Source: a virus
Length of the DNA: 26,317 bases
IMG/VR virus record: IMGVR_UViG_3300007363_000086
Coordinates: 1-26,317 of that record
Reading direction: 5' to 3' (one strand)
The notes beneath the pieces are model-generated. The model was not told the DNA's origin. It ran no database searches and saw only the letters and a program-made list of their open reading frames with translations. Each line of letters begins with the position of its first letter. The stretch's first letter is position 1. Of the stretch, positions 213-14,337 are shown piece by piece. Both the position numbers and the translations under genes were made by a program.

Positions 213-392
213 TTGGTTCCACATGATAAGAAAGACAAAGCTGGTTTTCTTTATGGTGTTTGTAAGTCAAATCCAGTTAATCACCCTTACTCAAAAACGA
301 AAGAGATCATGTTCCCTCCTGATGATTGGATGGGGATGGAGTGTTACGAGAGCAGATACGACATAGGAAACCACCCAAGACCAAATGCTTAG
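213..392 (+). CDS. Small hypothetical protein, 59 aa, TTG start (candidate)
   Basis: A 60-codon frame runs from TTG at 213 to TAG at 390-392 and overlaps the downstream glycosyltransferase start (385) by 8 nt. The product is hydrophilic and rich in Pro, Tyr, Asp and Met (segments KSNPVNHPYSKTKEIMFPP and DDWMGMECYESRYDIGN), which looks far more protein-like than the competing ATG frame 223-366. There is no good Shine-Dalgarno sequence before the TTG, because the terminator T-run is directly upstream. The start is therefore uncertain, and an internal ATG near 307 is an alternative. I do not recognise a family. The overlap suggests translational coupling to the glycosyltransferase, and it may act with it. 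Confidence 0.5.
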   Translation: MVPHDKKDKAGFLYGVCKSNPVNHPYSKTKEIMFPPDDWMGMECYESRYDIGNHPRPNA

Positions 393-1086
393 TATTTTCG
401 TCGGCTACGACCCAAGAGAATCCGTCGCCTATCACACGTTCTGTAATTCCGTAATAAGACATGCATCAAAGCCGGTTCAGTTCATTCCTTTGGCTAAGAA
501 TTTAATTAACTTTGATGGCCGAAGGGACGGGTCTAATGATTTCATTTACTCAAGGTTCCTGGTTCCTTACTTAAATAGATACAACGGATGGGCCTTGTTC
601 TGTGACGGGGATATGGTTGTCACGGATGACATTGTTAAGTTATTCGATCTTGCTGACCCTTTTGGTAAGGCTGTGATGGTAGTTAAACATAACTACAAGA
701 CAAGGCAGAAGTTTAAGTATTTGGGAAATAAGAACGAGGACTACGAAAGGAAGAATTGGTCTAGCGTCATCCTCTGGAACTGTAAGCACTTTTCAAATCT
801 TAAATTAACCCCTGAGTTTGTAAGTAAGAAGGATGGCTCTTACTTACACAGATTCCAGTGGTTAGATGATGAAGAAATAGGGGAGATTCCTAAAGAGTGG
901 AATTGGTTGGCTATTGAATATCCTGAAAACAAGGATGCCAAGTTAATCCATTACACATTAGGAACGCCTTGTTTTAAAGAATACTCAAATTGTTCTCAGT
1001 CCATAGACTGGCACAGGGAAAGAATATCCATGATGGAGCCTATAAAGGTTCTGGATATTTGTTCCTCACAAAAACAACAAATATGA
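385..1086 (+). CDS. DxD glycosyltransferase (GT-A fold, GT8-like)
   Basis: This 233-aa protein probably transfers a sugar from a nucleotide-sugar donor. The N-terminus (LSIFVGYDPRES) is a typical GT-A donor-binding beta strand. FCDGDMVV at about 72-79 contains the DGD metal-binding motif. IHYTLGTPCF near 188-197 resembles the C-terminal His that completes the metal site in GT8-type enzymes. Neither a signal peptide nor a membrane segment is seen, so it should act in the cytoplasm. It starts inside the end of the 59-aa ORF and ends with an ATGA overlap into an 18-codon ORF leading to terS. It is a second sugar-modifying gene, separate from the cassette at 9133-13771. The acceptor (virion protein, phage DNA or host polysaccharide) cannot be read from sequence. 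Confidence 0.8.
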   Translation: MLSIFVGYDPRESVAYHTFCNSVIRHASKPVQFIPLAKNLINFDGRRDGSNDFIYSRFLVPYLNRYNGWALFCDGDMVVTDDIVKLFDLADPFGKAVMVVKHNYKTRQKFKYLGNKNEDYERKNWSSVILWNCKHFSNLKLTPEFVSKKDGSYLHRFQWLDDEEIGEIPKEWNWLAIEYPENKDAKLIHYTLGTPCFKEYSNCSQSIDWHRERISMMEPIKVLDICSSQKQQI

Positions 1087-7773: not shown

Positions 7774-8745
7774 ATGGCTATTGCCGCAACCAACACATAC
7801 TCCGGTCTGACCGGACTTGCAGAAGATTTCCAAGATACCATTTTCGACATCTCGCCCGAAGAAACCCCGCTGATTTCGATGGCAAAGAAGTTCAAGGCTA
7901 ATGCGACCCTGCATCAGTGGCAGATCGACACGCTGGCCGCACAAGGCTCTAACCGTCAGCTTGAGGGTCTTGATGCGACTTACGCGACTGCTGCGCCGAC
8001 GACTGTCAACAGCAACTACTGTCAGATTTCCAGCAAAACCGTGAAAATCTCCAAGACTGCTGATGCCATTCGCAAGTATGGCCGTAAGTCGGAGATTGCC
8101 TACCAACTGACCAAGCGCGGTAAGGAACTGCGGCTCGACATGGAATACGCCGCGATTCGTAACCAAGCGTCGTCTGCTGGTGGCACGGGTGCTGCGCGTA
8201 GTTCCGCAGGTCTTGAGTCTTGGATCGGTGGGAACCGTATCCTTGCCAAGCTCGGCGGCGCGGCGAACACCACCGGCACGACTCCGGGCTTTGCTTCGGG
8301 TGCGTGTGCTGCTCCGACTGACGGAACTCAAGCGACGTTCATTGAGTCCGACCTTCAGAGCGCACTTCAAGCCGCGTGGACTGACGGTGGCGACCCCTCC
8401 GTTGTTCTGATGTCTGCGACCAACAAGGCCCGTTTCTCGGCCTTCACTGGTATTGCCACGAAATACAACGAAGTTAAGGGCGTTACTCAAGCCCGTATCG
8501 TTGGCGCTGCGGACGTTTATACCTCTGACTTCGGGAATCACATGGTCAAACTGTCGCGTCAATGCCGCGATCAGGCTGTGCTGTGCGTTGATCCTGAATA
8601 CGTCGGTATCGCTACCCTGCGCCCGATGCAGAAGGAAGAACTGGCGAAGATCGGTGATAGCACCAACTACCAAATCGTGTGCGAGTGGACGCTGGTTGTT
8701 CAAAACAGCAACGCCCATGCGAAGGTTCAGGACGTTGGCCTGTAA
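7774..8745 (+). CDS. Major capsid protein (SU10-type, HK97 fold)
   Basis: This 323-aa shell protein is recognised by the N-terminal arm pattern FQDTIFDISPEETPLISM followed by LHQWQIDTLA, characteristic of the SU10-like/DUF5309 capsid family. The central part includes a conserved RGKELRLDMEYAAIRNQ helix (about 112-130). AAGGAA lies just upstream of ATG 7774. Codon use differs from its neighbours: the arginines I traced are all CGN, mostly CGT/CGC, with no AGA/AGG, whereas most nearby genes use AGG/AGA freely. This fits a gene tuned for very high expression. A terminator follows 19 nt after the stop. The long antisense frame over this gene is a by-product of its composition. Confidence 0.93.
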   Translation: MAIAATNTYSGLTGLAEDFQDTIFDISPEETPLISMAKKFKANATLHQWQIDTLAAQGSNRQLEGLDATYATAAPTTVNSNYCQISSKTVKISKTADAIRKYGRKSEIAYQLTKRGKELRLDMEYAAIRNQASSAGGTGAARSSAGLESWIGGNRILAKLGGAANTTGTTPGFASGACAAPTDGTQATFIESDLQSALQAAWTDGGDPSVVLMSATNKARFSAFTGIATKYNEVKGVTQARIVGAADVYTSDFGNHMVKLSRQCRDQAVLCVDPEYVGIATLRPMQKEELAKIGDSTNYQIVCEWTLVVQNSNAHAKVQDVGL

Positions 8746-8763
8746 TACTAACTAACCAACATT

Positions 8764-8792
8764 GGGGCTGGCTTCGGTCAGCCCCTTTTTTT
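8764..8792 (+). terminator. Rho-independent terminator after the capsid gene
   Basis: GGGGCTG at 8764-8770 pairs with CAGCCCC at 8779-8785 around a GC-rich loop containing TTCGG, followed by seven T (8786-8792). The next start codon begins at 8793, directly after the T-run, so any downstream message must come from readthrough. Confidence 0.9.
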
Positions 8793-9146
8793 ATGCCACT
8801 ACTTTTCGACCATAACCCGGATACAGGGGTTACGCAGTATTTTGACTATGACGAACTGACCGACACGATGGCGATTACATCGGTTCAGGACGTTAGCGAA
8901 ATTCTGGACGATCTTCAAAAAAAGAAGAACGACCCGGAGGCATGGAAAAAGGGGGTTAAACAGTCATTCGCGCATTTTGCCTCTATACCCCCCATTGTTG
9001 AGCTTGAGCTAAGAAAAAAAGGCATCAACATTTACGACAAGAACTGCACAAAGAGGCTCATTCAGGAGATCGAGCAGAACTACCCGTATTTGAAGGCAAC
9101 TGACGCAAAACTCTGGAGACCCAAAGTCAAGCATGACAAAAAATGA
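8793..9146 (+). CDS. Conserved phage protein downstream of the capsid gene, 117 aa
   Basis: The ATG at 8793 follows the last T of the capsid terminator and has no Shine-Dalgarno sequence. The N-terminus MPLLFDHNPDTGVTQYFDYD matches the usual beginning of a small conserved protein (pattern FDHDP.TG....FDYDE... then VQDV..IL) that accompanies capsid genes in SU10-like phages, which supports this start over longer in-frame extensions. The remainder (IPPIVELELRKKGINIYDKN) is also characteristic. Its function is not established. A virion or head-completion role is inferred from synteny. It overlaps the next gene by 14 nt, which ties the glycosyltransferase cassette to this unit. Confidence 0.75.
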   Translation: MPLLFDHNPDTGVTQYFDYDELTDTMAITSVQDVSEILDDLQKKKNDPEAWKKGVKQSFAHFASIPPIVELELRKKGINIYDKNCTKRLIQEIEQNYPYLKATDAKLWRPKVKHDKK

Positions 9147-10479
9147 GTTGTTGGAGTGCCAGCTTGCTATAAAAAAACTAACAGAAGAAAGCAATTTTGA
9201 CGAAGCCCTGCCGTTAATTTACGCGGCATTGGAGCATTACCCTGATGATGCGGCGACTCTGCATTACATGGGATATATCTACTTAATGTCTGAGCAACCG
9301 GCGTTTGCTTTTCAGTATTTCAGGCGGGCGCTTCAGGAATCTCCGAATAAGACTGTCTGGTGTTCTCTTGGTAGATCGTCGCATGAGTTGGGAAGGTATA
9401 AGGAAGCGATTAACTGTTACCTGAAGTCTGCGGAATTAGACCCTTCATACGCTCACGCTTACACAAACGCTGCGGCCACGTTCGCACAGACCTCTAATTG
9501 GGATGATTGTGAGAAGTCCGCGAAGCTGGCCCTAGAGTGCGACCCGAAGGAACTCAGCGCAGAGTTAAACCTCGCTCACGCTCTGTTAGCTAAAGGCGAT
9601 TGGGAAAACGGGTGGAGTCATTGGGGCAAGTCTTTAGGGTGTAAGTATCGGAAGGAATGGGTTTACGGAGAGGAAAAGCGATGGGATGGCTCTCCTGATA
9701 AACGGGTGGTTGTTTACGGTGAGCAGGGTTTAGGGGATGAGATTTTCTACGGGTCTTGTGTTCCCGATCTGATAGAAACCTCTCAAAAGGTCTGGATTGA
9801 CTGCGATCCTAAACTAACGGGTCTGTTTAAAAGGTCTTTCCCTAAAGCAGAGGTTCACGGAACAAGGCTTGATCCCTCTCCACCGTGGGTTGCCGGTGCC
9901 TCAATAGAGGCTAGGGTGGCGATTGGGGGATTACCGGAGTTTTTCAGGAAGAAAGACAAAGACTTTCCTGGCACACCTTATCTCGTTCCCTGCCCTGACA
10001 GAAAACTGATGTGGCAAGCCCTGTTTAAGTCATGGGGCAAGAAAGTCGTGGGGATCACAACCCACGGTGGCGGGAGGCATACGAACGAGAAGGGCCGGAA
10101 GATCGAATTAGAGGATTGGCTTCCTGTTCTACAAACAAAGGGTTACGAGTTTGTTTCTCTGGATTACAAGCCTAACCCTGATTTAGAGATGTTCTGTGAG
10201 CTGAACGATGTCCATGTGCATCAGTTCAACACGATCACTCAAAGTAAAGACTACGACGACACGGCAGGGCTGATTTCCGCCCTTGATCTTGTAATCGGGG
10301 TGAACACAACGGCTTTGCATTGTTCCGCTGCGATTGGCGTTAAGACGATTGCCCTTATCCCTACTTACCATCAGTGGCGATACGCAAGGCCTTTTATGCC
10401 GTGGTATCGAAGCATGAGGCTGATTACCCAAGAGGACAAGACTTGGGGTGAAGTGATAGCGAAACTCGTATGGGATTAG
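9133..10479 (+). CDS. TPR-glycosyltransferase fusion (GT-B, heptosyltransferase-like)
   Basis: This 448-aa protein has two parts. Residues about 1-175 are tetratricopeptide repeats (for example LHYMGYIYLMSEQPAFAFQY, SLGRSSHELGRYKEAINCYL, SAELNLAHALLAKGDWENGW). Residues about 190-448 are a GT-B domain with an EQGLGDEIFYGS loop near 197 and SALDLVIGVNTTALHCSAAIG near 380-400, the signature found in GT9/heptosyltransferase-like and TPR-linked enzymes. The TPR part probably binds a protein or acceptor partner. It has no membrane segments. It is first in a five-gene cassette, starts 14 nt inside the preceding gene and overlaps the next by 10 nt. The fusion resembles protein-modifying glycosyltransferases in layout, so a protein acceptor is possible but unproven. 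Confidence 0.82.
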   Translation: MTKNELLECQLAIKKLTEESNFDEALPLIYAALEHYPDDAATLHYMGYIYLMSEQPAFAFQYFRRALQESPNKTVWCSLGRSSHELGRYKEAINCYLKSAELDPSYAHAYTNAAATFAQTSNWDDCEKSAKLALECDPKELSAELNLAHALLAKGDWENGWSHWGKSLGCKYRKEWVYGEEKRWDGSPDKRVVVYGEQGLGDEIFYGSCVPDLIETSQKVWIDCDPKLTGLFKRSFPKAEVHGTRLDPSPPWVAGASIEARVAIGGLPEFFRKKDKDFPGTPYLVPCPDRKLMWQALFKSWGKKVVGITTHGGGRHTNEKGRKIELEDWLPVLQTKGYEFVSLDYKPNPDLEMFCELNDVHVHQFNTITQSKDYDDTAGLISALDLVIGVNTTALHCSAAIGVKTIALIPTYHQWRYARPFMPWYRSMRLITQEDKTWGEVIAKLVWD

Positions 10480-11195
10480 GGGATTGGATTCTCGCCACAG
10501 GCGAGGCAAGAGAGTTAAACATACAGACCGGCAAGAAATGTATTTTTGGGGATGGTAAAAAAAGGTTTTACGAGCCTGAAATTCTAAAGGACAACCCCAG
10601 AATCGCGGGAGAGGATGAGGGCGGGGTTTGGGTTCATAACTTCCCCGGTTATCGACCGTATATCAGTCAGGTTAAAAATGGCCGTTTATATTTCAACGAC
10701 CATTACCGACCTTTAGCCGGTGAGTTGTTTGGGTTAAGGAAGTCCGACCGTCTGTCTGGGAAGATTCTGGTTGAGACTCGGACTAAAAAAGACCCGAATA
10801 TGCCTTTTACCATTAACAAGGCGTATCCGTATTGGGATGACCTTCTCTCAAGGGATTTGCCGATTGTCAAGGTTCAACAGATCGAAACGAACAGGTTTAG
10901 AGATGCGCTCCAATTTCTTTCTGGCGCTGCCCTGCTTGTTACTACGGATGGCGCTTTGCATCATGCTGCTGCCGCTATTGGGGTTCCTGCTGTTGTTATA
11001 TGGGGTGGTTATTCTTCTCCTAGACACTTGGGGTATGACACGCAGGTAAACATACATGACGGGTCTGAGCCTTGCGGGACGTTTGCAAAGAAATGCCCTC
11101 ACTGTGAGAAAAAGGCAAAAGCGATAGACCCTGAGATGGTTTACAGGATTGTTAAGTCTGAGTTTGATAAATGCACATCCAAGTCCTGTACGTAA
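10470..11195 (+). CDS. GT9-like glycosyltransferase
   Basis: This 241-aa protein carries GLGDWILATGEA at its very N-terminus (2-13), the glycine-rich first loop of heptosyltransferase-type GT-B enzymes. It also carries LLVTTDGALHHAAAAIGVPAVVIWG near 155-179, the conserved C-terminal donor-site segment (TxDSGxxHxAAAxxxPxVxLFG type). A C-terminal CxxC (KKCPHCEKK) could bind metal. It is shorter than full-length GT9 enzymes (about 320-350 aa), and the region between the two motifs appears compressed. The ATG lies within the TPR-glycosyltransferase stop region and the gene overlaps the next by 25 nt. Confidence 0.75.
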   Translation: MGLGDWILATGEARELNIQTGKKCIFGDGKKRFYEPEILKDNPRIAGEDEGGVWVHNFPGYRPYISQVKNGRLYFNDHYRPLAGELFGLRKSDRLSGKILVETRTKKDPNMPFTINKAYPYWDDLLSRDLPIVKVQQIETNRFRDALQFLSGAALLVTTDGALHHAAAAIGVPAVVIWGGYSSPRHLGYDTQVNIHDGSEPCGTFAKKCPHCEKKAKAIDPEMVYRIVKSEFDKCTSKSCT

Positions 11196-12001
11196 ATCGT
11201 GATTACAGTTACGACAAGGACTGGCTCGACGCTTTTTCTGATGTTGGGGCCGAGTTAATAGATAAACCCCAAAAGCTGGATGCTGATTTAATTGTTGTTC
11301 AGCACTCAGTAGGGGCGCATGACGGTATTTTCCCGAAGTGGATGATAGACAACATTCTTTCCAGGCGGGGAAAGGTTGTTCTTTTCTTCACGAATGAATT
11401 TAAGCACGTAACAGAAAGAAAAGAGCTTGCTGAAATGCTGAATGCGGACTTTATCTGCACTCAGTTACCGGATGGGAGGTTGTATGACTACCCTACAATT
11501 TCCTTGCCTCATGCTCTGAACCCTAAAGTCTTTTACAACAAAAAAACTGAAAGGGATATTTCTTTCGGGTTCAGGGGGAATCTATACCGCAAAGGGATTT
11601 ATGACGCTAGGAACGAGATTATTAAATCGTTCCATAGGGTAAGCGGATCGGACATCAAGTTTGATGCCGACTTTAAAAAAAGAGGGCATTGGGCCGCATT
11701 TCTTAATCGGTGCAAAGCAATGCCTGGTGCGGAGGCTGGCGACAAGAGGGGCCGGATTGTAAGCCCTAGACACCTAGAGGCTATCGGTTGCGGTTGCCTT
11801 AATGTTCTCCTGCCCGGTGAGTATTGCGGGGTTTTGAGTCCAGACCATTATTTGACGTTTACAACCATTGAAGAAGCGATAGATGTTGTTCTTGATGAAA
11901 AAAGAAGGTCTGAGATCACTGAAAGGGCTTTGGCTCATGTGCTTGAGAATCACACATACAGGCACAGGGTTGATTTACTAATGAAGAAAATCAATGCTTG
12001 A
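11171..12001 (+). CDS. CgeB-like glycosyltransferase
   Basis: This 276-aa protein contains SPRHLEAIGCGCLNVL near 198-213 and a following EYCGVLSPDHYLTF segment, with the ending RALAHVLENHTYRHRVDLLM. This combination is the hallmark of the glycosyltransferase group-1 C-terminal domain found in CgeB-type (spore-maturation-like) proteins. The N-terminal half (DLIVVQHSVGAHDGIFPKW) fits the acceptor-binding Rossmann-like domain. It is predicted cytoplasmic. It lies third in the cassette, with 25-nt and 8-nt overlaps to its neighbours. Donor and acceptor are unknown. Confidence 0.75.
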   Translation: MHIQVLYVNRDYSYDKDWLDAFSDVGAELIDKPQKLDADLIVVQHSVGAHDGIFPKWMIDNILSRRGKVVLFFTNEFKHVTERKELAEMLNADFICTQLPDGRLYDYPTISLPHALNPKVFYNKKTERDISFGFRGNLYRKGIYDARNEIIKSFHRVSGSDIKFDADFKKRGHWAAFLNRCKAMPGAEAGDKRGRIVSPRHLEAIGCGCLNVLLPGEYCGVLSPDHYLTFTTIEEAIDVVLDEKRRSEITERALAHVLENHTYRHRVDLLMKKINA

Positions 12002-13034
12002 GTTGTCTGAGTTAAAAGCTGCTTGGCACATTGAGAAAATAGGTGATTTAAGGCGGGGTAAGGATGTTGTTCCCTCGCATGTGCAAATCATCCTTTCAGA
12101 CCTTTGCAACCAAGATTGTCATTTCTGCGCTTATCGCATGGAGGGCGGGTTCTCAACGGAGAAGTTTGGTGTTGATGGAAACAAAAACCCAAACCGCCGC
12201 ATCCCAACTGAGAAGGTTTTTGAGATTCTTTCGGATTGTGCGAGTTTGGGTGTTGAGGCCATAGAGTTTACGGGTGGCGGGGAGCCTACTGTTCATCCTG
12301 ATTGGGAAAAGATCATTACATACGCCCAAAGTCTTGGGCTATCAACCGGATTGGTAACAAATGCGGTTCGATTAAAGGATTGTCCTGCTGTAGATGGTTT
12401 GACTTGGCTCAGAGTGAGCCTTGATGCTGGAAAAAAAGAAACCTACCAGAGGATTAGAAAGAGCCTTGCTTGGGACAAGGTGATGAAAAACCTCGATATG
12501 TTGGGGAAAAAGAAAGGCCCGCTTATCGGCGTTGGGTTTGTTCTTACAAGAGAGAATTACAAGGAATTAGAGGATTGCGCGAAGATCGTTAAGGGTTTCG
12601 GAATACCTTATATACGTGTATCTGCGATGTTCTCAACAGGCGGGGCTGATTACTACGATGGCCTTATAGATGAAATAAACGCACAACGTATTTTAGCCAA
12701 AAACCTTGAGGACGATAATTTTAAGGTTGTTGATTTTTTTGATGACCGTGTTTTAGACCTTAAAAAAGAGTCTCCTGATTATTCTTTTTGCGGGTATCAA
12801 CAGTTTGTTTTGTATATCGGCGGGGATCAAAAGGTTTACACATGTTGCACTAACGCATATACAACCGCCGGTGAGATAGGAGACCTGAGTAATATGAGTT
12901 TTGCGTCATGGCTCAAGTCTCACCGAAGATATGAGTTTGATGCAAGAAAGTGTCATCATTGCCAATTTAACAATAAGAACAAGATTATTGATTACTTGAT
13001 TAACCCAAGCCCCGCCCATATAGGTTTTGTCTGA
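11994..13034 (+). CDS. Radical SAM enzyme with SPASM/twitch-like C-terminus
   Basis: This 346-aa enzyme uses a [4Fe-4S] cluster to cleave S-adenosylmethionine and start radical chemistry. The cluster motif CxxxCxxC is at C38, C42 and C45. GGGEP at 94-98 is the SAM-binding segment. A second group of cysteines, C266, C284/C285, C320 and C323, fits an auxiliary cluster of the SPASM/twitch type used by peptide- and sugar-modifying members. It sits fourth in the glycosyltransferase cassette with an 8-nt overlap upstream and a 1-nt overlap downstream. No precursor peptide or RiPP leader gene is visible nearby, which favours sugar or protein modification over classical RiPP maturation, but that is inference. 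Confidence 0.88.
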   Translation: MLELSELKAAWHIEKIGDLRRGKDVVPSHVQIILSDLCNQDCHFCAYRMEGGFSTEKFGVDGNKNPNRRIPTEKVFEILSDCASLGVEAIEFTGGGEPTVHPDWEKIITYAQSLGLSTGLVTNAVRLKDCPAVDGLTWLRVSLDAGKKETYQRIRKSLAWDKVMKNLDMLGKKKGPLIGVGFVLTRENYKELEDCAKIVKGFGIPYIRVSAMFSTGGADYYDGLIDEINAQRILAKNLEDDNFKVVDFFDDRVLDLKKESPDYSFCGYQQFVLYIGGDQKVYTCCTNAYTTAGEIGDLSNMSFASWLKSHRRYEFDARKCHHCQFNNKNKIIDYLINPSPAHIGFV

Positions 13035-13771
13035 TGCAATTTGTTTTAAGCGGCGTTGAAAGAAGGGATAACTGCTTAAAAAGGCTTCATGCTGTATCCG
13101 GTGGTCAGATTGTTAAGAATTGGGATGGTGAGTCAATTCCGGTAATCGTCGGGAATTTAAACGGTGCTGATGAGATACAGACTGAGTGCCGGGATAAGAA
13201 AATCCCTTACGTCTATATCGACCACGGGTATTTTCGGAGGGATTTGGGCCTTAAATACGCTCGGTTCTGTGTGAGCAATTTCCACAACACCGATTGGCGA
13301 GACTACGAGGAGACTCCAAAAACGCCGGTATTCGATTGGAAGGACTACGGCGGGCATATTGTCATCCTCCCACCCGCTGAGTATGTGAGCAGGGTTTACC
13401 GTGCTTCTAATTGGCTGGCAGACACAATCGACCTGGTAAGGAAAAACACAGACCGGGTGATTATGGTCAAGAGAAAGCATGACGGTGATTTATTTTCCGT
13501 CATTAAAGACTGTTGGGCTGTTGTGAGTTTCGGGTCTGTTGCTGATGTAGAGAGTGCGCTTTATGGAAAGCCGCTTTTTACCTCTGAATTTAGCCCCGCA
13601 AGTCCGATTTCTGAAAAAGATTTTACGAAAATTGAGTCTCCCATTTATCCAGACCGTGAGAAGTGGATCAGGTCTCTTTACGGTTGTGAGTGGGAGTCAT
13701 CCGAGATGGAACTTTGTTGGGAAAGACTTAAATGGCAATTACCACTTACGCAGAACTCCAAACCGCTGTAG
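13034..13771 (+). CDS. Capsule-glycosyltransferase-like protein
   Basis: In this 245-aa protein the segment WAVVSFGSVADVESALYGKPLF near 160-181 matches the SNxxxEALLxGKPV-type nucleotide-sugar site of KpsS/KpsC-like capsule polysaccharide proteins and similar phage GT-B enzymes. The N-terminal IPYVYIDHGYFRR segment also fits that family, where an HG.. motif binds the donor. It is short for KpsS, so it is probably a minimal phage version. It is last in the cassette and its final 40 nt overlap the head-tail adaptor gene in another frame, so the cassette is locked into the structural operon. Activity and substrate are unknown. Confidence 0.65.
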   Translation: MQFVLSGVERRDNCLKRLHAVSGGQIVKNWDGESIPVIVGNLNGADEIQTECRDKKIPYVYIDHGYFRRDLGLKYARFCVSNFHNTDWRDYEETPKTPVFDWKDYGGHIVILPPAEYVSRVYRASNWLADTIDLVRKNTDRVIMVKRKHDGDLFSVIKDCWAVVSFGSVADVESALYGKPLFTSEFSPASPISEKDFTKIESPIYPDREKWIRSLYGCEWESSEMELCWERLKWQLPLTQNSKPL

Positions 13772-14337
13772 GGAACTGGCTGCACAGGGCAGACCTTTCC
13801 TCGCAGATACCGGACTTTATTGTTTTCGGTGAAAAACGGATTTTCAGGGAAACCCGCGTCCGTGTCATGGAGGCTGCTTTCAGCGACACAATGTCATCTG
13901 GAGTGATAGCGGTTCCTTCGGATTACCTTGAGTTTAAGTCTGTTTATCTGGACACCTCCCCGACGATTAAACTAGGACGGGTTGAGGCTTCACAGATTTA
14001 CGACAAATACCCCACAAGAGCAACGGACGGGTATCCGCAATTCATCGCAAGGGAGGGCAGTAACTTCATTTTCGGGCCTTATCCTTCAAGTGACTTTACC
14101 GTTAAGGGCATTTACTACGCCCAACCGACTTCTATACAGTCGAGCGCGAATGCGTTGTTTTTGGCAAACCCAGACCTTTATTTATACGCCGCACTTCTCG
14201 CTGCGACACCTTACCTTGCGAATGACGCTCGGATTCAGGTATGGGAAAACGAATACTTGAAGATTCAAGAACAACTCAGAAGGCAAGATAAGGCTGAAGA
14301 TGCCTCCGGTGGCGGGTTGATGGTAAGGGCGGCATGA
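13732..14337 (+). CDS. Head-tail adaptor (P22 gp4 / SU10 adaptor type)
   Basis: This 201-aa protein has the typical opening of this family (TYAELQTAVGNWLHRADLSSQIPDFIVFGEKRI), a four-helix core with a central beta insertion (IAVPSDYLEFKSVYLD; GYPQFIAREGSNFIFGPYP), and the late helix NPDLYLYAALLAATPYL. It should form a ring beneath the portal to extend the channel and accept the tail hub. GGGAAAGA lies upstream of ATG 13732, inside the previous gene. The ATGA-type junction to the next gene (4-nt overlap) keeps the usual adaptor to tail-hub order. Confidence 0.88.
   Translation: MAITTYAELQTAVGNWLHRADLSSQIPDFIVFGEKRIFRETRVRVMEAAFSDTMSSGVIAVPSDYLEFKSVYLDTSPTIKLGRVEASQIYDKYPTRATDGYPQFIAREGSNFIFGPYPSSDFTVKGIYYAQPTSIQSSANALFLANPDLYLYAALLAATPYLANDARIQVWENEYLKIQEQLRRQDKAEDASGGGLMVRAA

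What the first reader, a model, noticed from the sequence alone, without database searches (positions are those of the whole stretch)
9133..13771. Five-gene glycosylation plus radical SAM cassette locked inside the structural operon
Seen: a TPR-glycosyltransferase, GT9-like, CgeB-like, radical SAM and capsule-GT-like genes are joined by overlaps of 10, 25, 8 and 1 nt. The cassette is tied to flanking structural genes by 14- and 40-nt overlaps. Known: capsid and adaptor genes normally lie close together in short-tailed phages. Inference: it is a co-expressed late modification system, for instance building and radical-tailoring a glycan on a virion protein, or remodelling the host envelope. I know of no described phage system with this exact set.
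Basis: partly seen in the sequence, partly recalled or inferred. Interest (0 to 1): 0.8.

Follow-up and report, generated by a model that had tools for sequence, protein, structure and literature searches.

The report
Phage sugar-decorating cassette behind capsid gene
Next to its shell-protein gene this short-tailed phage carries a set of sugar-attaching enzymes plus a radical enzyme that probably edits a sugar; the slot and core enzymes are common in related phages, but this exact set was found only here, and what gets decorated (most likely the virus particle) is still unproven.

Summary
The five overlapping genes at 9133-13771 are real. They occupy a fixed slot of SU10-type podoviruses, between a small post-capsid gene (X) and the adaptor gene. 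In 79/79 retrieved relatives the TPR-GT9-like enzyme (GTa) follows X directly. What comes next varies: GTb-GTe, a methyltransferase, FkbM genes, or nothing. Other SU10-MCP phages have the slot empty. So GTa-GTb-GTe is a common core, and GTc plus the radical SAM (rSAM) gene are an insertion seen only in this genome. The rSAM belongs to a phage family without close cellular relatives here. 56 of 66 non-redundant family loci carry glycosyltransferase or methyltransferase partners nearby, against 0 of 39 control loci. The closest solved folds are the sugar-acting enzymes DesII and BlsE. A sixth, GT8-like gene lies at 385-1086; its relatives sit inside the slot elsewhere. A terminator-like hairpin (8764-8785) separates capsid gene from cassette, so equal co-expression with capsid is unlikely. 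No membrane segments, GtrA or integrase: against serotype conversion. Thymidylate synthase is mostly absent: weakly against DNA hypermodification. Best reading: late glycosylation of a virion protein with rSAM sugar editing. The acceptor is unproven.

The parts
385..1086 (+). GT8-like glycosyltransferase (233 aa), a detached sixth member upstream of the terminase gene
   Evidence: PF01501 23.7 bits against cut-off 24.3; 45-54% identical homologues lie inside the MCP-adaptor slot in L034, L029, L030, L031 and L079, and next to GTe homologues in phages Mosig and CcrColossus
7774..8745 (+). SU10-type major capsid protein (left flank)
   Evidence: PF17236 298.8 bits; phrog_1328
8764..8785 (+). Terminator-like hairpin (GGGGCTGGC-TTCG-GTCAGCCCC, then T7) between the capsid gene and X
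   Evidence: MFE -19 kcal/mol, z -3.96; a hairpin at the same place in most relatives with different sequence
8793..9146 (+). X, small conserved post-capsid protein (117 aa) that opens the slot; start codon abuts the hairpin's T run
   Evidence: phrog_3982 6e-8; immediately upstream of GTa in 79 of 79 loci
9133..10479 (+). GTa: TPR array + GT9-like GT-B glycosyltransferase (448 aa), the constant first enzyme of the slot
   Evidence: (pLDDT 91)
10470..11195 (+). GTb: short GT9-type glycosyltransferase (241 aa)
   Evidence: PF01075 22.3 bits; invariant MGxGD and DGxxHHA motifs; shares the C-terminal site with GTa
11171..12001 (+). GTc: Glyco_trans_1_2 (CgeB-type) glycosyltransferase (276 aa), found only in this genome
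   Evidence: PF13524 45.5 bits; no relatives
11994..13034 (+). rSAM: radical SAM enzyme (346 aa) with C-terminal cysteines for a probable auxiliary Fe-S cluster
   Evidence: PF04055 70.1 bits; invariant C38/C42/C45, GGGEP, C266/C284/C285/C320/C323; fold
13034..13771 (+). GTe: putative glycosyltransferase (245 aa)
   Evidence: 43-54% identical orthologues in the same slot; sub-threshold DUF6716; homologues beside a GT8 in phages Mosig and CcrColossus
13732..14337 (+). SU10-type adaptor / tail-tube-A protein (right flank)
   Evidence: PF24175 104.6 bits

Best explanation
The cassette is a late, cytoplasmic glycosylation system of a lytic SU10-type podovirus, lodged in a slot that this phage lineage keeps for sugar-modifying genes. 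GTa, the constant member, most likely docks a phage structural protein through its TPR array and transfers the first sugar from a host nucleotide sugar (its GT9-type site suggests ADP-heptose or similar). GTb, GTc, GTe and the detached GT8 extend or branch the glycan. The rSAM enzyme edits a sugar by radical chemistry (for example epimerisation, dehydration/deamination or oxidation), either on the nucleotide sugar or on the glycan, giving an unusual residue. Shown by sequence: gene identities, fixed slot, core versus variable members, rSAM-glycan gene linkage, intact catalytic motifs. Inferred: protein acceptor, virion as target, donor sugar, order of steps, rSAM reaction.
For: Fixed slot: 79/79 GTa loci (23 clusters at 95% nt identity) read MCP-X-GTa-[variable]-adaptor wherever the contig reaches; L216 carries GTa alone, so GTa is the core. 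The GTa-bearing phages form one MCP clade (100/98), so the slot system has been kept over long divergence. GTa: high-confidence TPR + GT-B model; best full-architecture matches are the protein glycosyltransferases SPINDLY and OGT. rSAM family: glycan partners in 56/66 non-redundant loci against 0/39 controls; GT2 directly downstream in 32 of 83, methyltransferase directly beside it in 23. Further loci lie beside GDP-mannose-dehydratase-type, DegT aminotransferase and glycosyltransferase genes. Cyanophage SynMITS9220M01 has rSAM-methyltransferase-GT just after ADP-heptose genes. Top solved folds DesII and, by profile, BlsE (2e-16) act on sugars. No membrane segments in any cassette protein, no GtrA, no integrase in 15 records.
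Against: No acceptor, donor or product is shown. Fold matches of GTa to OGT/SPINDLY have low TM-scores (0.36-0.41) and may be driven by the TPR part; GT41 is not matched by sequence. SuiB and SkfB (peptide-modifying rSAMs) rank close behind DesII/BlsE. One rSAM locus (L013/L097) has no glycan genes nearby and lies among DNA-metabolism genes. The published reading for GT-rich regions in pelagimyophages is host O-chain modification (PMC7029224). The five-gene set rests on one genome.
Confidence: 0.55

Rival explanations
1. Host-envelope remodelling: the enzymes change the host's LPS or capsule during infection, blocking superinfection or virion re-binding to debris.
For: Literature interpretation for glycosyltransferases, with radical SAM cassettes, in pelagimyophage hypervariable regions (PMC7029224). 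GT9, GT8 and FkbM families are common in LPS pathways (established knowledge). Late expression fits release.
Against: No flippase-type or membrane protein; all cassette proteins soluble; no GtrA and no integrase; slot beside virion genes in every GTa relative mapped; OGT-like TPR architecture.
Confidence: 0.25
2. The rSAM is a peptide-modifying enzyme acting on a virion protein or small phage peptide, only incidentally beside glycosyltransferases.
For: SuiB, SkfB and PqqE are among the best folds; sactipeptide and PqqE models among the NCBIfam hits; C-terminal cysteines like SPASM/twitch.
Against: No precursor peptide gene seen next to it; 56/66 loci carry glycan genes, others NDP-sugar genes; SPASM match below cut-off (16 against 21.5); all NCBIfam peptide-maturase hits far below cut-offs.
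Confidence: 0.15
3. DNA hypermodification: glycosyltransferases and rSAM decorate phage DNA bases to evade restriction.
For: Phage glycosyltransferases and radical SAM enzymes are known in DNA hypermodification (established knowledge; Pyle 2024 as cited in PMC12619734).
Against: Thymidylate-synthase homologue absent in 14 of 15 rSAM-related and 14 of 15 GTa-related records; genes sit in the late structural region, with nucleotide-sugar rather than nucleotide genes. Many records are fragments, and only one marker family was tested.
Confidence: 0.05
4. A neutral hot spot: the slot accumulates random 'moron' genes with no joint function.
For: Other SU10 phages carry unrelated genes there (GDSL hydrolase and tRNA in phiM5; HNH endonuclease in a Rhizobium phage) or nothing.
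Against: In the GTa clade nearly every occupant that could be identified is a glycosyltransferase or methyltransferase; GTa is retained in 79/79 and GTb-GTe travel together; catalytic motifs are invariant.
Confidence: 0.05

Closest known systems
Virion glycosylation of mycobacteriophages (Freeman et al. 2023, cited in PMC12619734; primary paper not held)
   Same: Phage-encoded glycosyltransferases; glycans on capsid and tail-tube subunits are reported there.
   Different: Here short-tailed SU10-type phages, a fixed slot between post-capsid gene and adaptor, a TPR-GT9-like core enzyme, and an rSAM gene; no glycan demonstrated.
Glycosyltransferase-rich hypervariable host-recognition regions of pelagimyophages (PMC7029224)
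   Same: Variable glycosyltransferase genes and radical SAM cassettes in one phage region.
   Different: Those lie in the tail-fibre region of T4-like phages and were read as host O-chain modification; here a small fixed slot beside the capsid gene with a constant core enzyme.
Manatee Spring podovirus MW202801.1
   Same: rSAM gene after capsid gene and a small gene, followed by glycosyltransferases, PhyH-like, methyltransferase and NodB-like genes, then an SU10-type adaptor.
   Different: Different capsid type (phrog_1357) and rSAM only 26% identical; no GTa/GTb/GTe homologues detected there.
OGT / SPINDLY (GT41) protein glycosyltransferases
   Same: TPR array joined to a GT-B glycosyltransferase; best fold matches of GTa.
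   Different: GT domain carries GT9-type motifs, not GT41; low overall TM-score.
DesII and BlsE (sugar-modifying radical SAM enzymes)
   Same: Top Foldseek hits and top profile hit; CxxxCxxC core.
   Different: 13-20% identity; substrate unknown; phage-specific family with its own C-terminal cysteine pattern.

Membership tests
Radical SAM superfamily (PF04055) | Profile match above the curated cut-off | tested here: met
   70.1 bits against 29.5
Radical SAM superfamily (PF04055) | CxxxCxxC cluster motif and GGE motif | tested here: met
   C38/C42/C45 and G94-G96, E97 invariant in 15 sequences
Radical SAM with SPASM domain (PF13186) | SPASM profile above cut-off | tested here: not met
   16.0 bits against 21.5; five invariant C-terminal cysteines fit some kind of auxiliary cluster
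Viperin (antiviral radical SAM) | NCBIfam viperin model above cut-off | tested here: not met
   51.2 bits against 180
GT9 glycosyltransferases (GTb) | PF01075 above cut-off and GxGD / DGxxH motifs | tested here: met
   22.3 bits against 22, only just above; motifs invariant in 4 orthologues
GT9 glycosyltransferases (GTa) | PF01075 above cut-off | tested here: not met
   14.7 bits against 22; C-terminal site aligns with GTb at 93% HHalign probability
GT41 (OGT/SPINDLY) | GT41 profile match | tested here: not met
   no GT41 family among the Pfam or NCBIfam hits
GT41 (OGT/SPINDLY) | TPR array plus GT-B fold | tested here: met
   model pLDDT 91; top PDB matches, TM 0.36-0.41
Phage virion glycosylation system | Glycan on a virion protein, lost when the genes are lost | not testable with these tools
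   needs virions and MS
Gtr serotype-conversion cassette | GtrA flippase and membrane-bound transferases in a temperate phage | tested here: not met
   no GtrA, no integrase, no membrane segments; records may be incomplete
DNA hypermodification system | Thymidylate-synthase-like nucleotide hydroxymethylase | tested here: inconclusive
   PF00303 absent in 28 of 30 record searches over two record sets; records are often fragments and other hypermodification routes were not searched

The most novel reading that the evidence does not exclude
A widespread lineage of lytic short-tailed phages glycosylates its own virion with a TPR-GT9 initiating enzyme and lineage-specific elaborating genes, and this member has captured a phage-specific radical SAM enzyme that rewrites a sugar in the glycan. 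This would be a new class of viral radical enzyme acting on glycans, carried by unrelated phages with GT2 and methyltransferase partners.
Probability: 0.4. Interest if true: 0.82.

Novelty: new variant of a known kind. Interest (0 to 1): 0.6.

Why it matters
If right, virion glycosylation would be a routine, evolutionarily stable trait of an abundant phage lineage (hundreds of viral contigs encode GTa relatives), not a mycobacteriophage peculiarity. The slot gives a natural comparison: close relatives differ in which sugar genes they hold. The rSAM family offers a defined, testable enzyme whose neighbours point to sugar chemistry, and a cultured cyanophage (SynMITS9220M01) carries a relative.

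Tried and rejected
1) Viperin-like antiviral role for the rSAM: far below the curated cut-off; fold hits to viperin reflect the shared core. 2) Independent acquisition of rSAM by the window phage and L015: the tree places them apart, but one clade is not rejected (AU p = 0.249), so not claimed. 3) Foreign origin from base composition: cassette GC3 0.484 against 0.525 elsewhere, not significant (p = 0.18), although the rSAM gene has the lowest GC of the cassette (0.429). 4) Unusual overlaps as evidence of locking: overlaps are ordinary in this operon. 5) Bacterial origin of the rSAM: the scan of 84,980 genomes gave only four weak relatives (23-35%); the method finds close relatives only. 6) GTe family: no Pfam match above cut-off and no PDB match. 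7) Chimera: two contigs of metagenome 3300025635 break within GTb, but GTb aligns full length with orthologues, so the join is real. 8) Literature search for this gene combination found no description in the held library.
Full report
What is there. The window is a 26.3-kb virus record from an SU10-type short-tailed phage: terminase (PF04466/PF17288), portal (phrog_1216), scaffold, major capsid protein (PF17236), a small protein X (8793-9146, phrog_3982), the five-gene cassette, and an SU10 adaptor (PF24175). Overlaps of 1-10 nt are normal in this operon, so they are not evidence by themselves.

Gene identities. GTa has a TPR array and a GT9-like C-terminal part (TPR_1 4.9e-16; GT9 only 14.7 bits). 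Its GxGDE and H396 region is invariant in eight sequences, and its C-terminal site aligns with GTb (HHalign 93%). Its AlphaFold model is confident (pLDDT 91) and matches SPINDLY and OGT best, but at TM-scores of 0.36-0.41. GTb is a short GT9 enzyme just above the curated cut-off. GTc has the CgeB-type Glyco_trans_1_2 domain. GTe has no recognised family; three of four orthologues touch DUF6716, a putative glycosyltransferase, at a best E-value of only 0.014. The rSAM protein has all core motifs and five invariant C-terminal cysteines (C266, C284, C285, C320, C323).

The slot. A scan with the GTa alignment found at least 504 viral stretches encoding relatives, of which the best 80 were kept. 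In the 79 newly mapped loci (one of them the window's own genome) X lies immediately upstream of GTa, and the adaptor follows the cassette wherever the contig reaches. Dereplicated at 95% nucleotide identity there are 23 clusters: eight with GTb-GTe, six or seven with a methyltransferase only, two with FkbM plus a second gene, one each with methyltransferase-GTb-GTe and GTb-FkbM-GTe, one with GTa alone, and a few cut short by the contig end. None has rSAM or GTc. The phage record MW202512.1 from Manatee Spring also holds GTa after its capsid gene, followed by an endonuclease, FkbM and GalT-like genes. SU10-MCP relatives outside this clade have the slot empty: the marine-type contigs L036-L067 and records such as Methylophilales phage Venkman. 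Others hold unrelated genes there. In a capsid-protein tree the GTa-bearing phages are one clade with 100/98 support.

The sixth gene. An ORF at 385-1086, upstream of the terminase gene, is GT8-like (23.7 bits, cut-off 24.3). Its homologues lie inside the slot in L034, L029, L030, L031 and L079, beside GTe homologues in Pelagibacter phage Mosig and Caulobacter phage CcrColossus, and in rSAM loci L005 and L091. It probably belongs to the same system.

The rSAM family. Relatives at 38-69% identity occur in many viral contigs but hardly in genomes (four weak hits, 23-35%). They sit in different phage backbones: lambda-type portal and tail genes in L004, tape measure in L016, terminase in L007 and a phrog_1357 coat protein in L009, a tail protein in L010. 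The recurrent arrangement is methyltransferase-rSAM-GT2, often end to end. Dereplicated, 56 of 66 loci carry at least one of these glycosyltransferase/methyltransferase families in the stretch fetched, against 0 of 32 and 0 of 7 control loci. The controls are SU10-type phages only, so they are not matched for phage type. Of the ten loci without such partners, four that were checked have nucleotide-sugar or glycosyltransferase genes next door (L114, L115, L119, L155). L013/L097 remains a true exception. In the cyanophage SynMITS9220M01 a relative is followed by a methyltransferase and a glycosyltransferase and lies just after ADP-heptose genes. The window itself lacks the usual methyltransferase and GT2, and has GTc and GTe as neighbours instead. 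The rSAM model is moderate (pLDDT 79.5); the best solved folds are DesII and BlsE, both sugar-acting, followed by peptide maturases. The best PDB profile match is BlsE at 2e-16.

Expression. A strong terminator-like hairpin with a TTCG loop lies between the capsid stop and the X start (RNA fold -19 kcal/mol, z -3.96). Hairpins at this place recur with different sequences in most relatives examined, empty-slot phages included, usually followed closely by the X start codon. By analogy with terminators behind capsid genes in other phages (own knowledge), this probably lowers transcription of X, cassette and adaptor relative to capsid. So 'co-expressed with the structural genes' holds for the adaptor, not evidently for the capsid.

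Target. No cassette protein has a membrane segment. No GtrA and no integrase was found in 15 records. Thymidylate-synthase homologues were absent in 14 of 15 records in each of two sets; records are often incomplete. This disfavours serotype conversion and, more weakly, DNA hypermodification, and leaves virion glycosylation as the leading reading, with host-envelope change as the main rival. The published interpretation for pelagimyophage regions with glycosyltransferases and radical SAM cassettes is host O-chain modification (PMC7029224). Virion glycosylation in mycobacteriophages is cited in PMC12619734.

Verdict. Real, and a new variant of a known kind: a lineage-wide glycosylation slot with a constant TPR-GT9-like enzyme, in which this genome carries a GTc plus rSAM insertion found nowhere else here. 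The five-gene set is not a conserved unit; the three-gene core and the rSAM module are, separately.

Noticed in passing
window 8764-8800: A terminator-like hairpin plus T run ends directly at the start codon of X; the same placement, with different hairpin sequences, recurs in distant SU10-type and other podoviruses. It may act as attenuator and as leader for X at once.
   Followed up: partly
window 385-1086: GT8-like gene upstream of the terminase gene, a likely sixth member of the glycosylation system; in relatives it is inside the slot or upstream of the capsid region (L214, L220, L195, L222).
   Followed up: yes
L013 / L097: An rSAM relative (57% identical) lies among small early or DNA-metabolism genes with no glycan gene nearby (Sak4-like annealing protein downstream).
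   Followed up: partly
L018 9557-10375 and L153 3588-5498: A second radical SAM-like protein (L018, below cut-off) and a B12-binding radical SAM protein (L153) sit next to the rSAM in glycan-type regions.
   Followed up: no
L004 / L016 / L012 upstream of rSAM: An uncharacterised ~180-210 aa family ('G177') with no Pfam match recurs beside the methyltransferase-rSAM-GT2 module; possibly another glycosyltransferase.
   Followed up: partly
L078 (Sinorhizobium phage phiM5) 7352-9038: The same slot position holds a tRNA-Met and a GDSL/SGNH hydrolase annotated as found in the virion.
   Followed up: no
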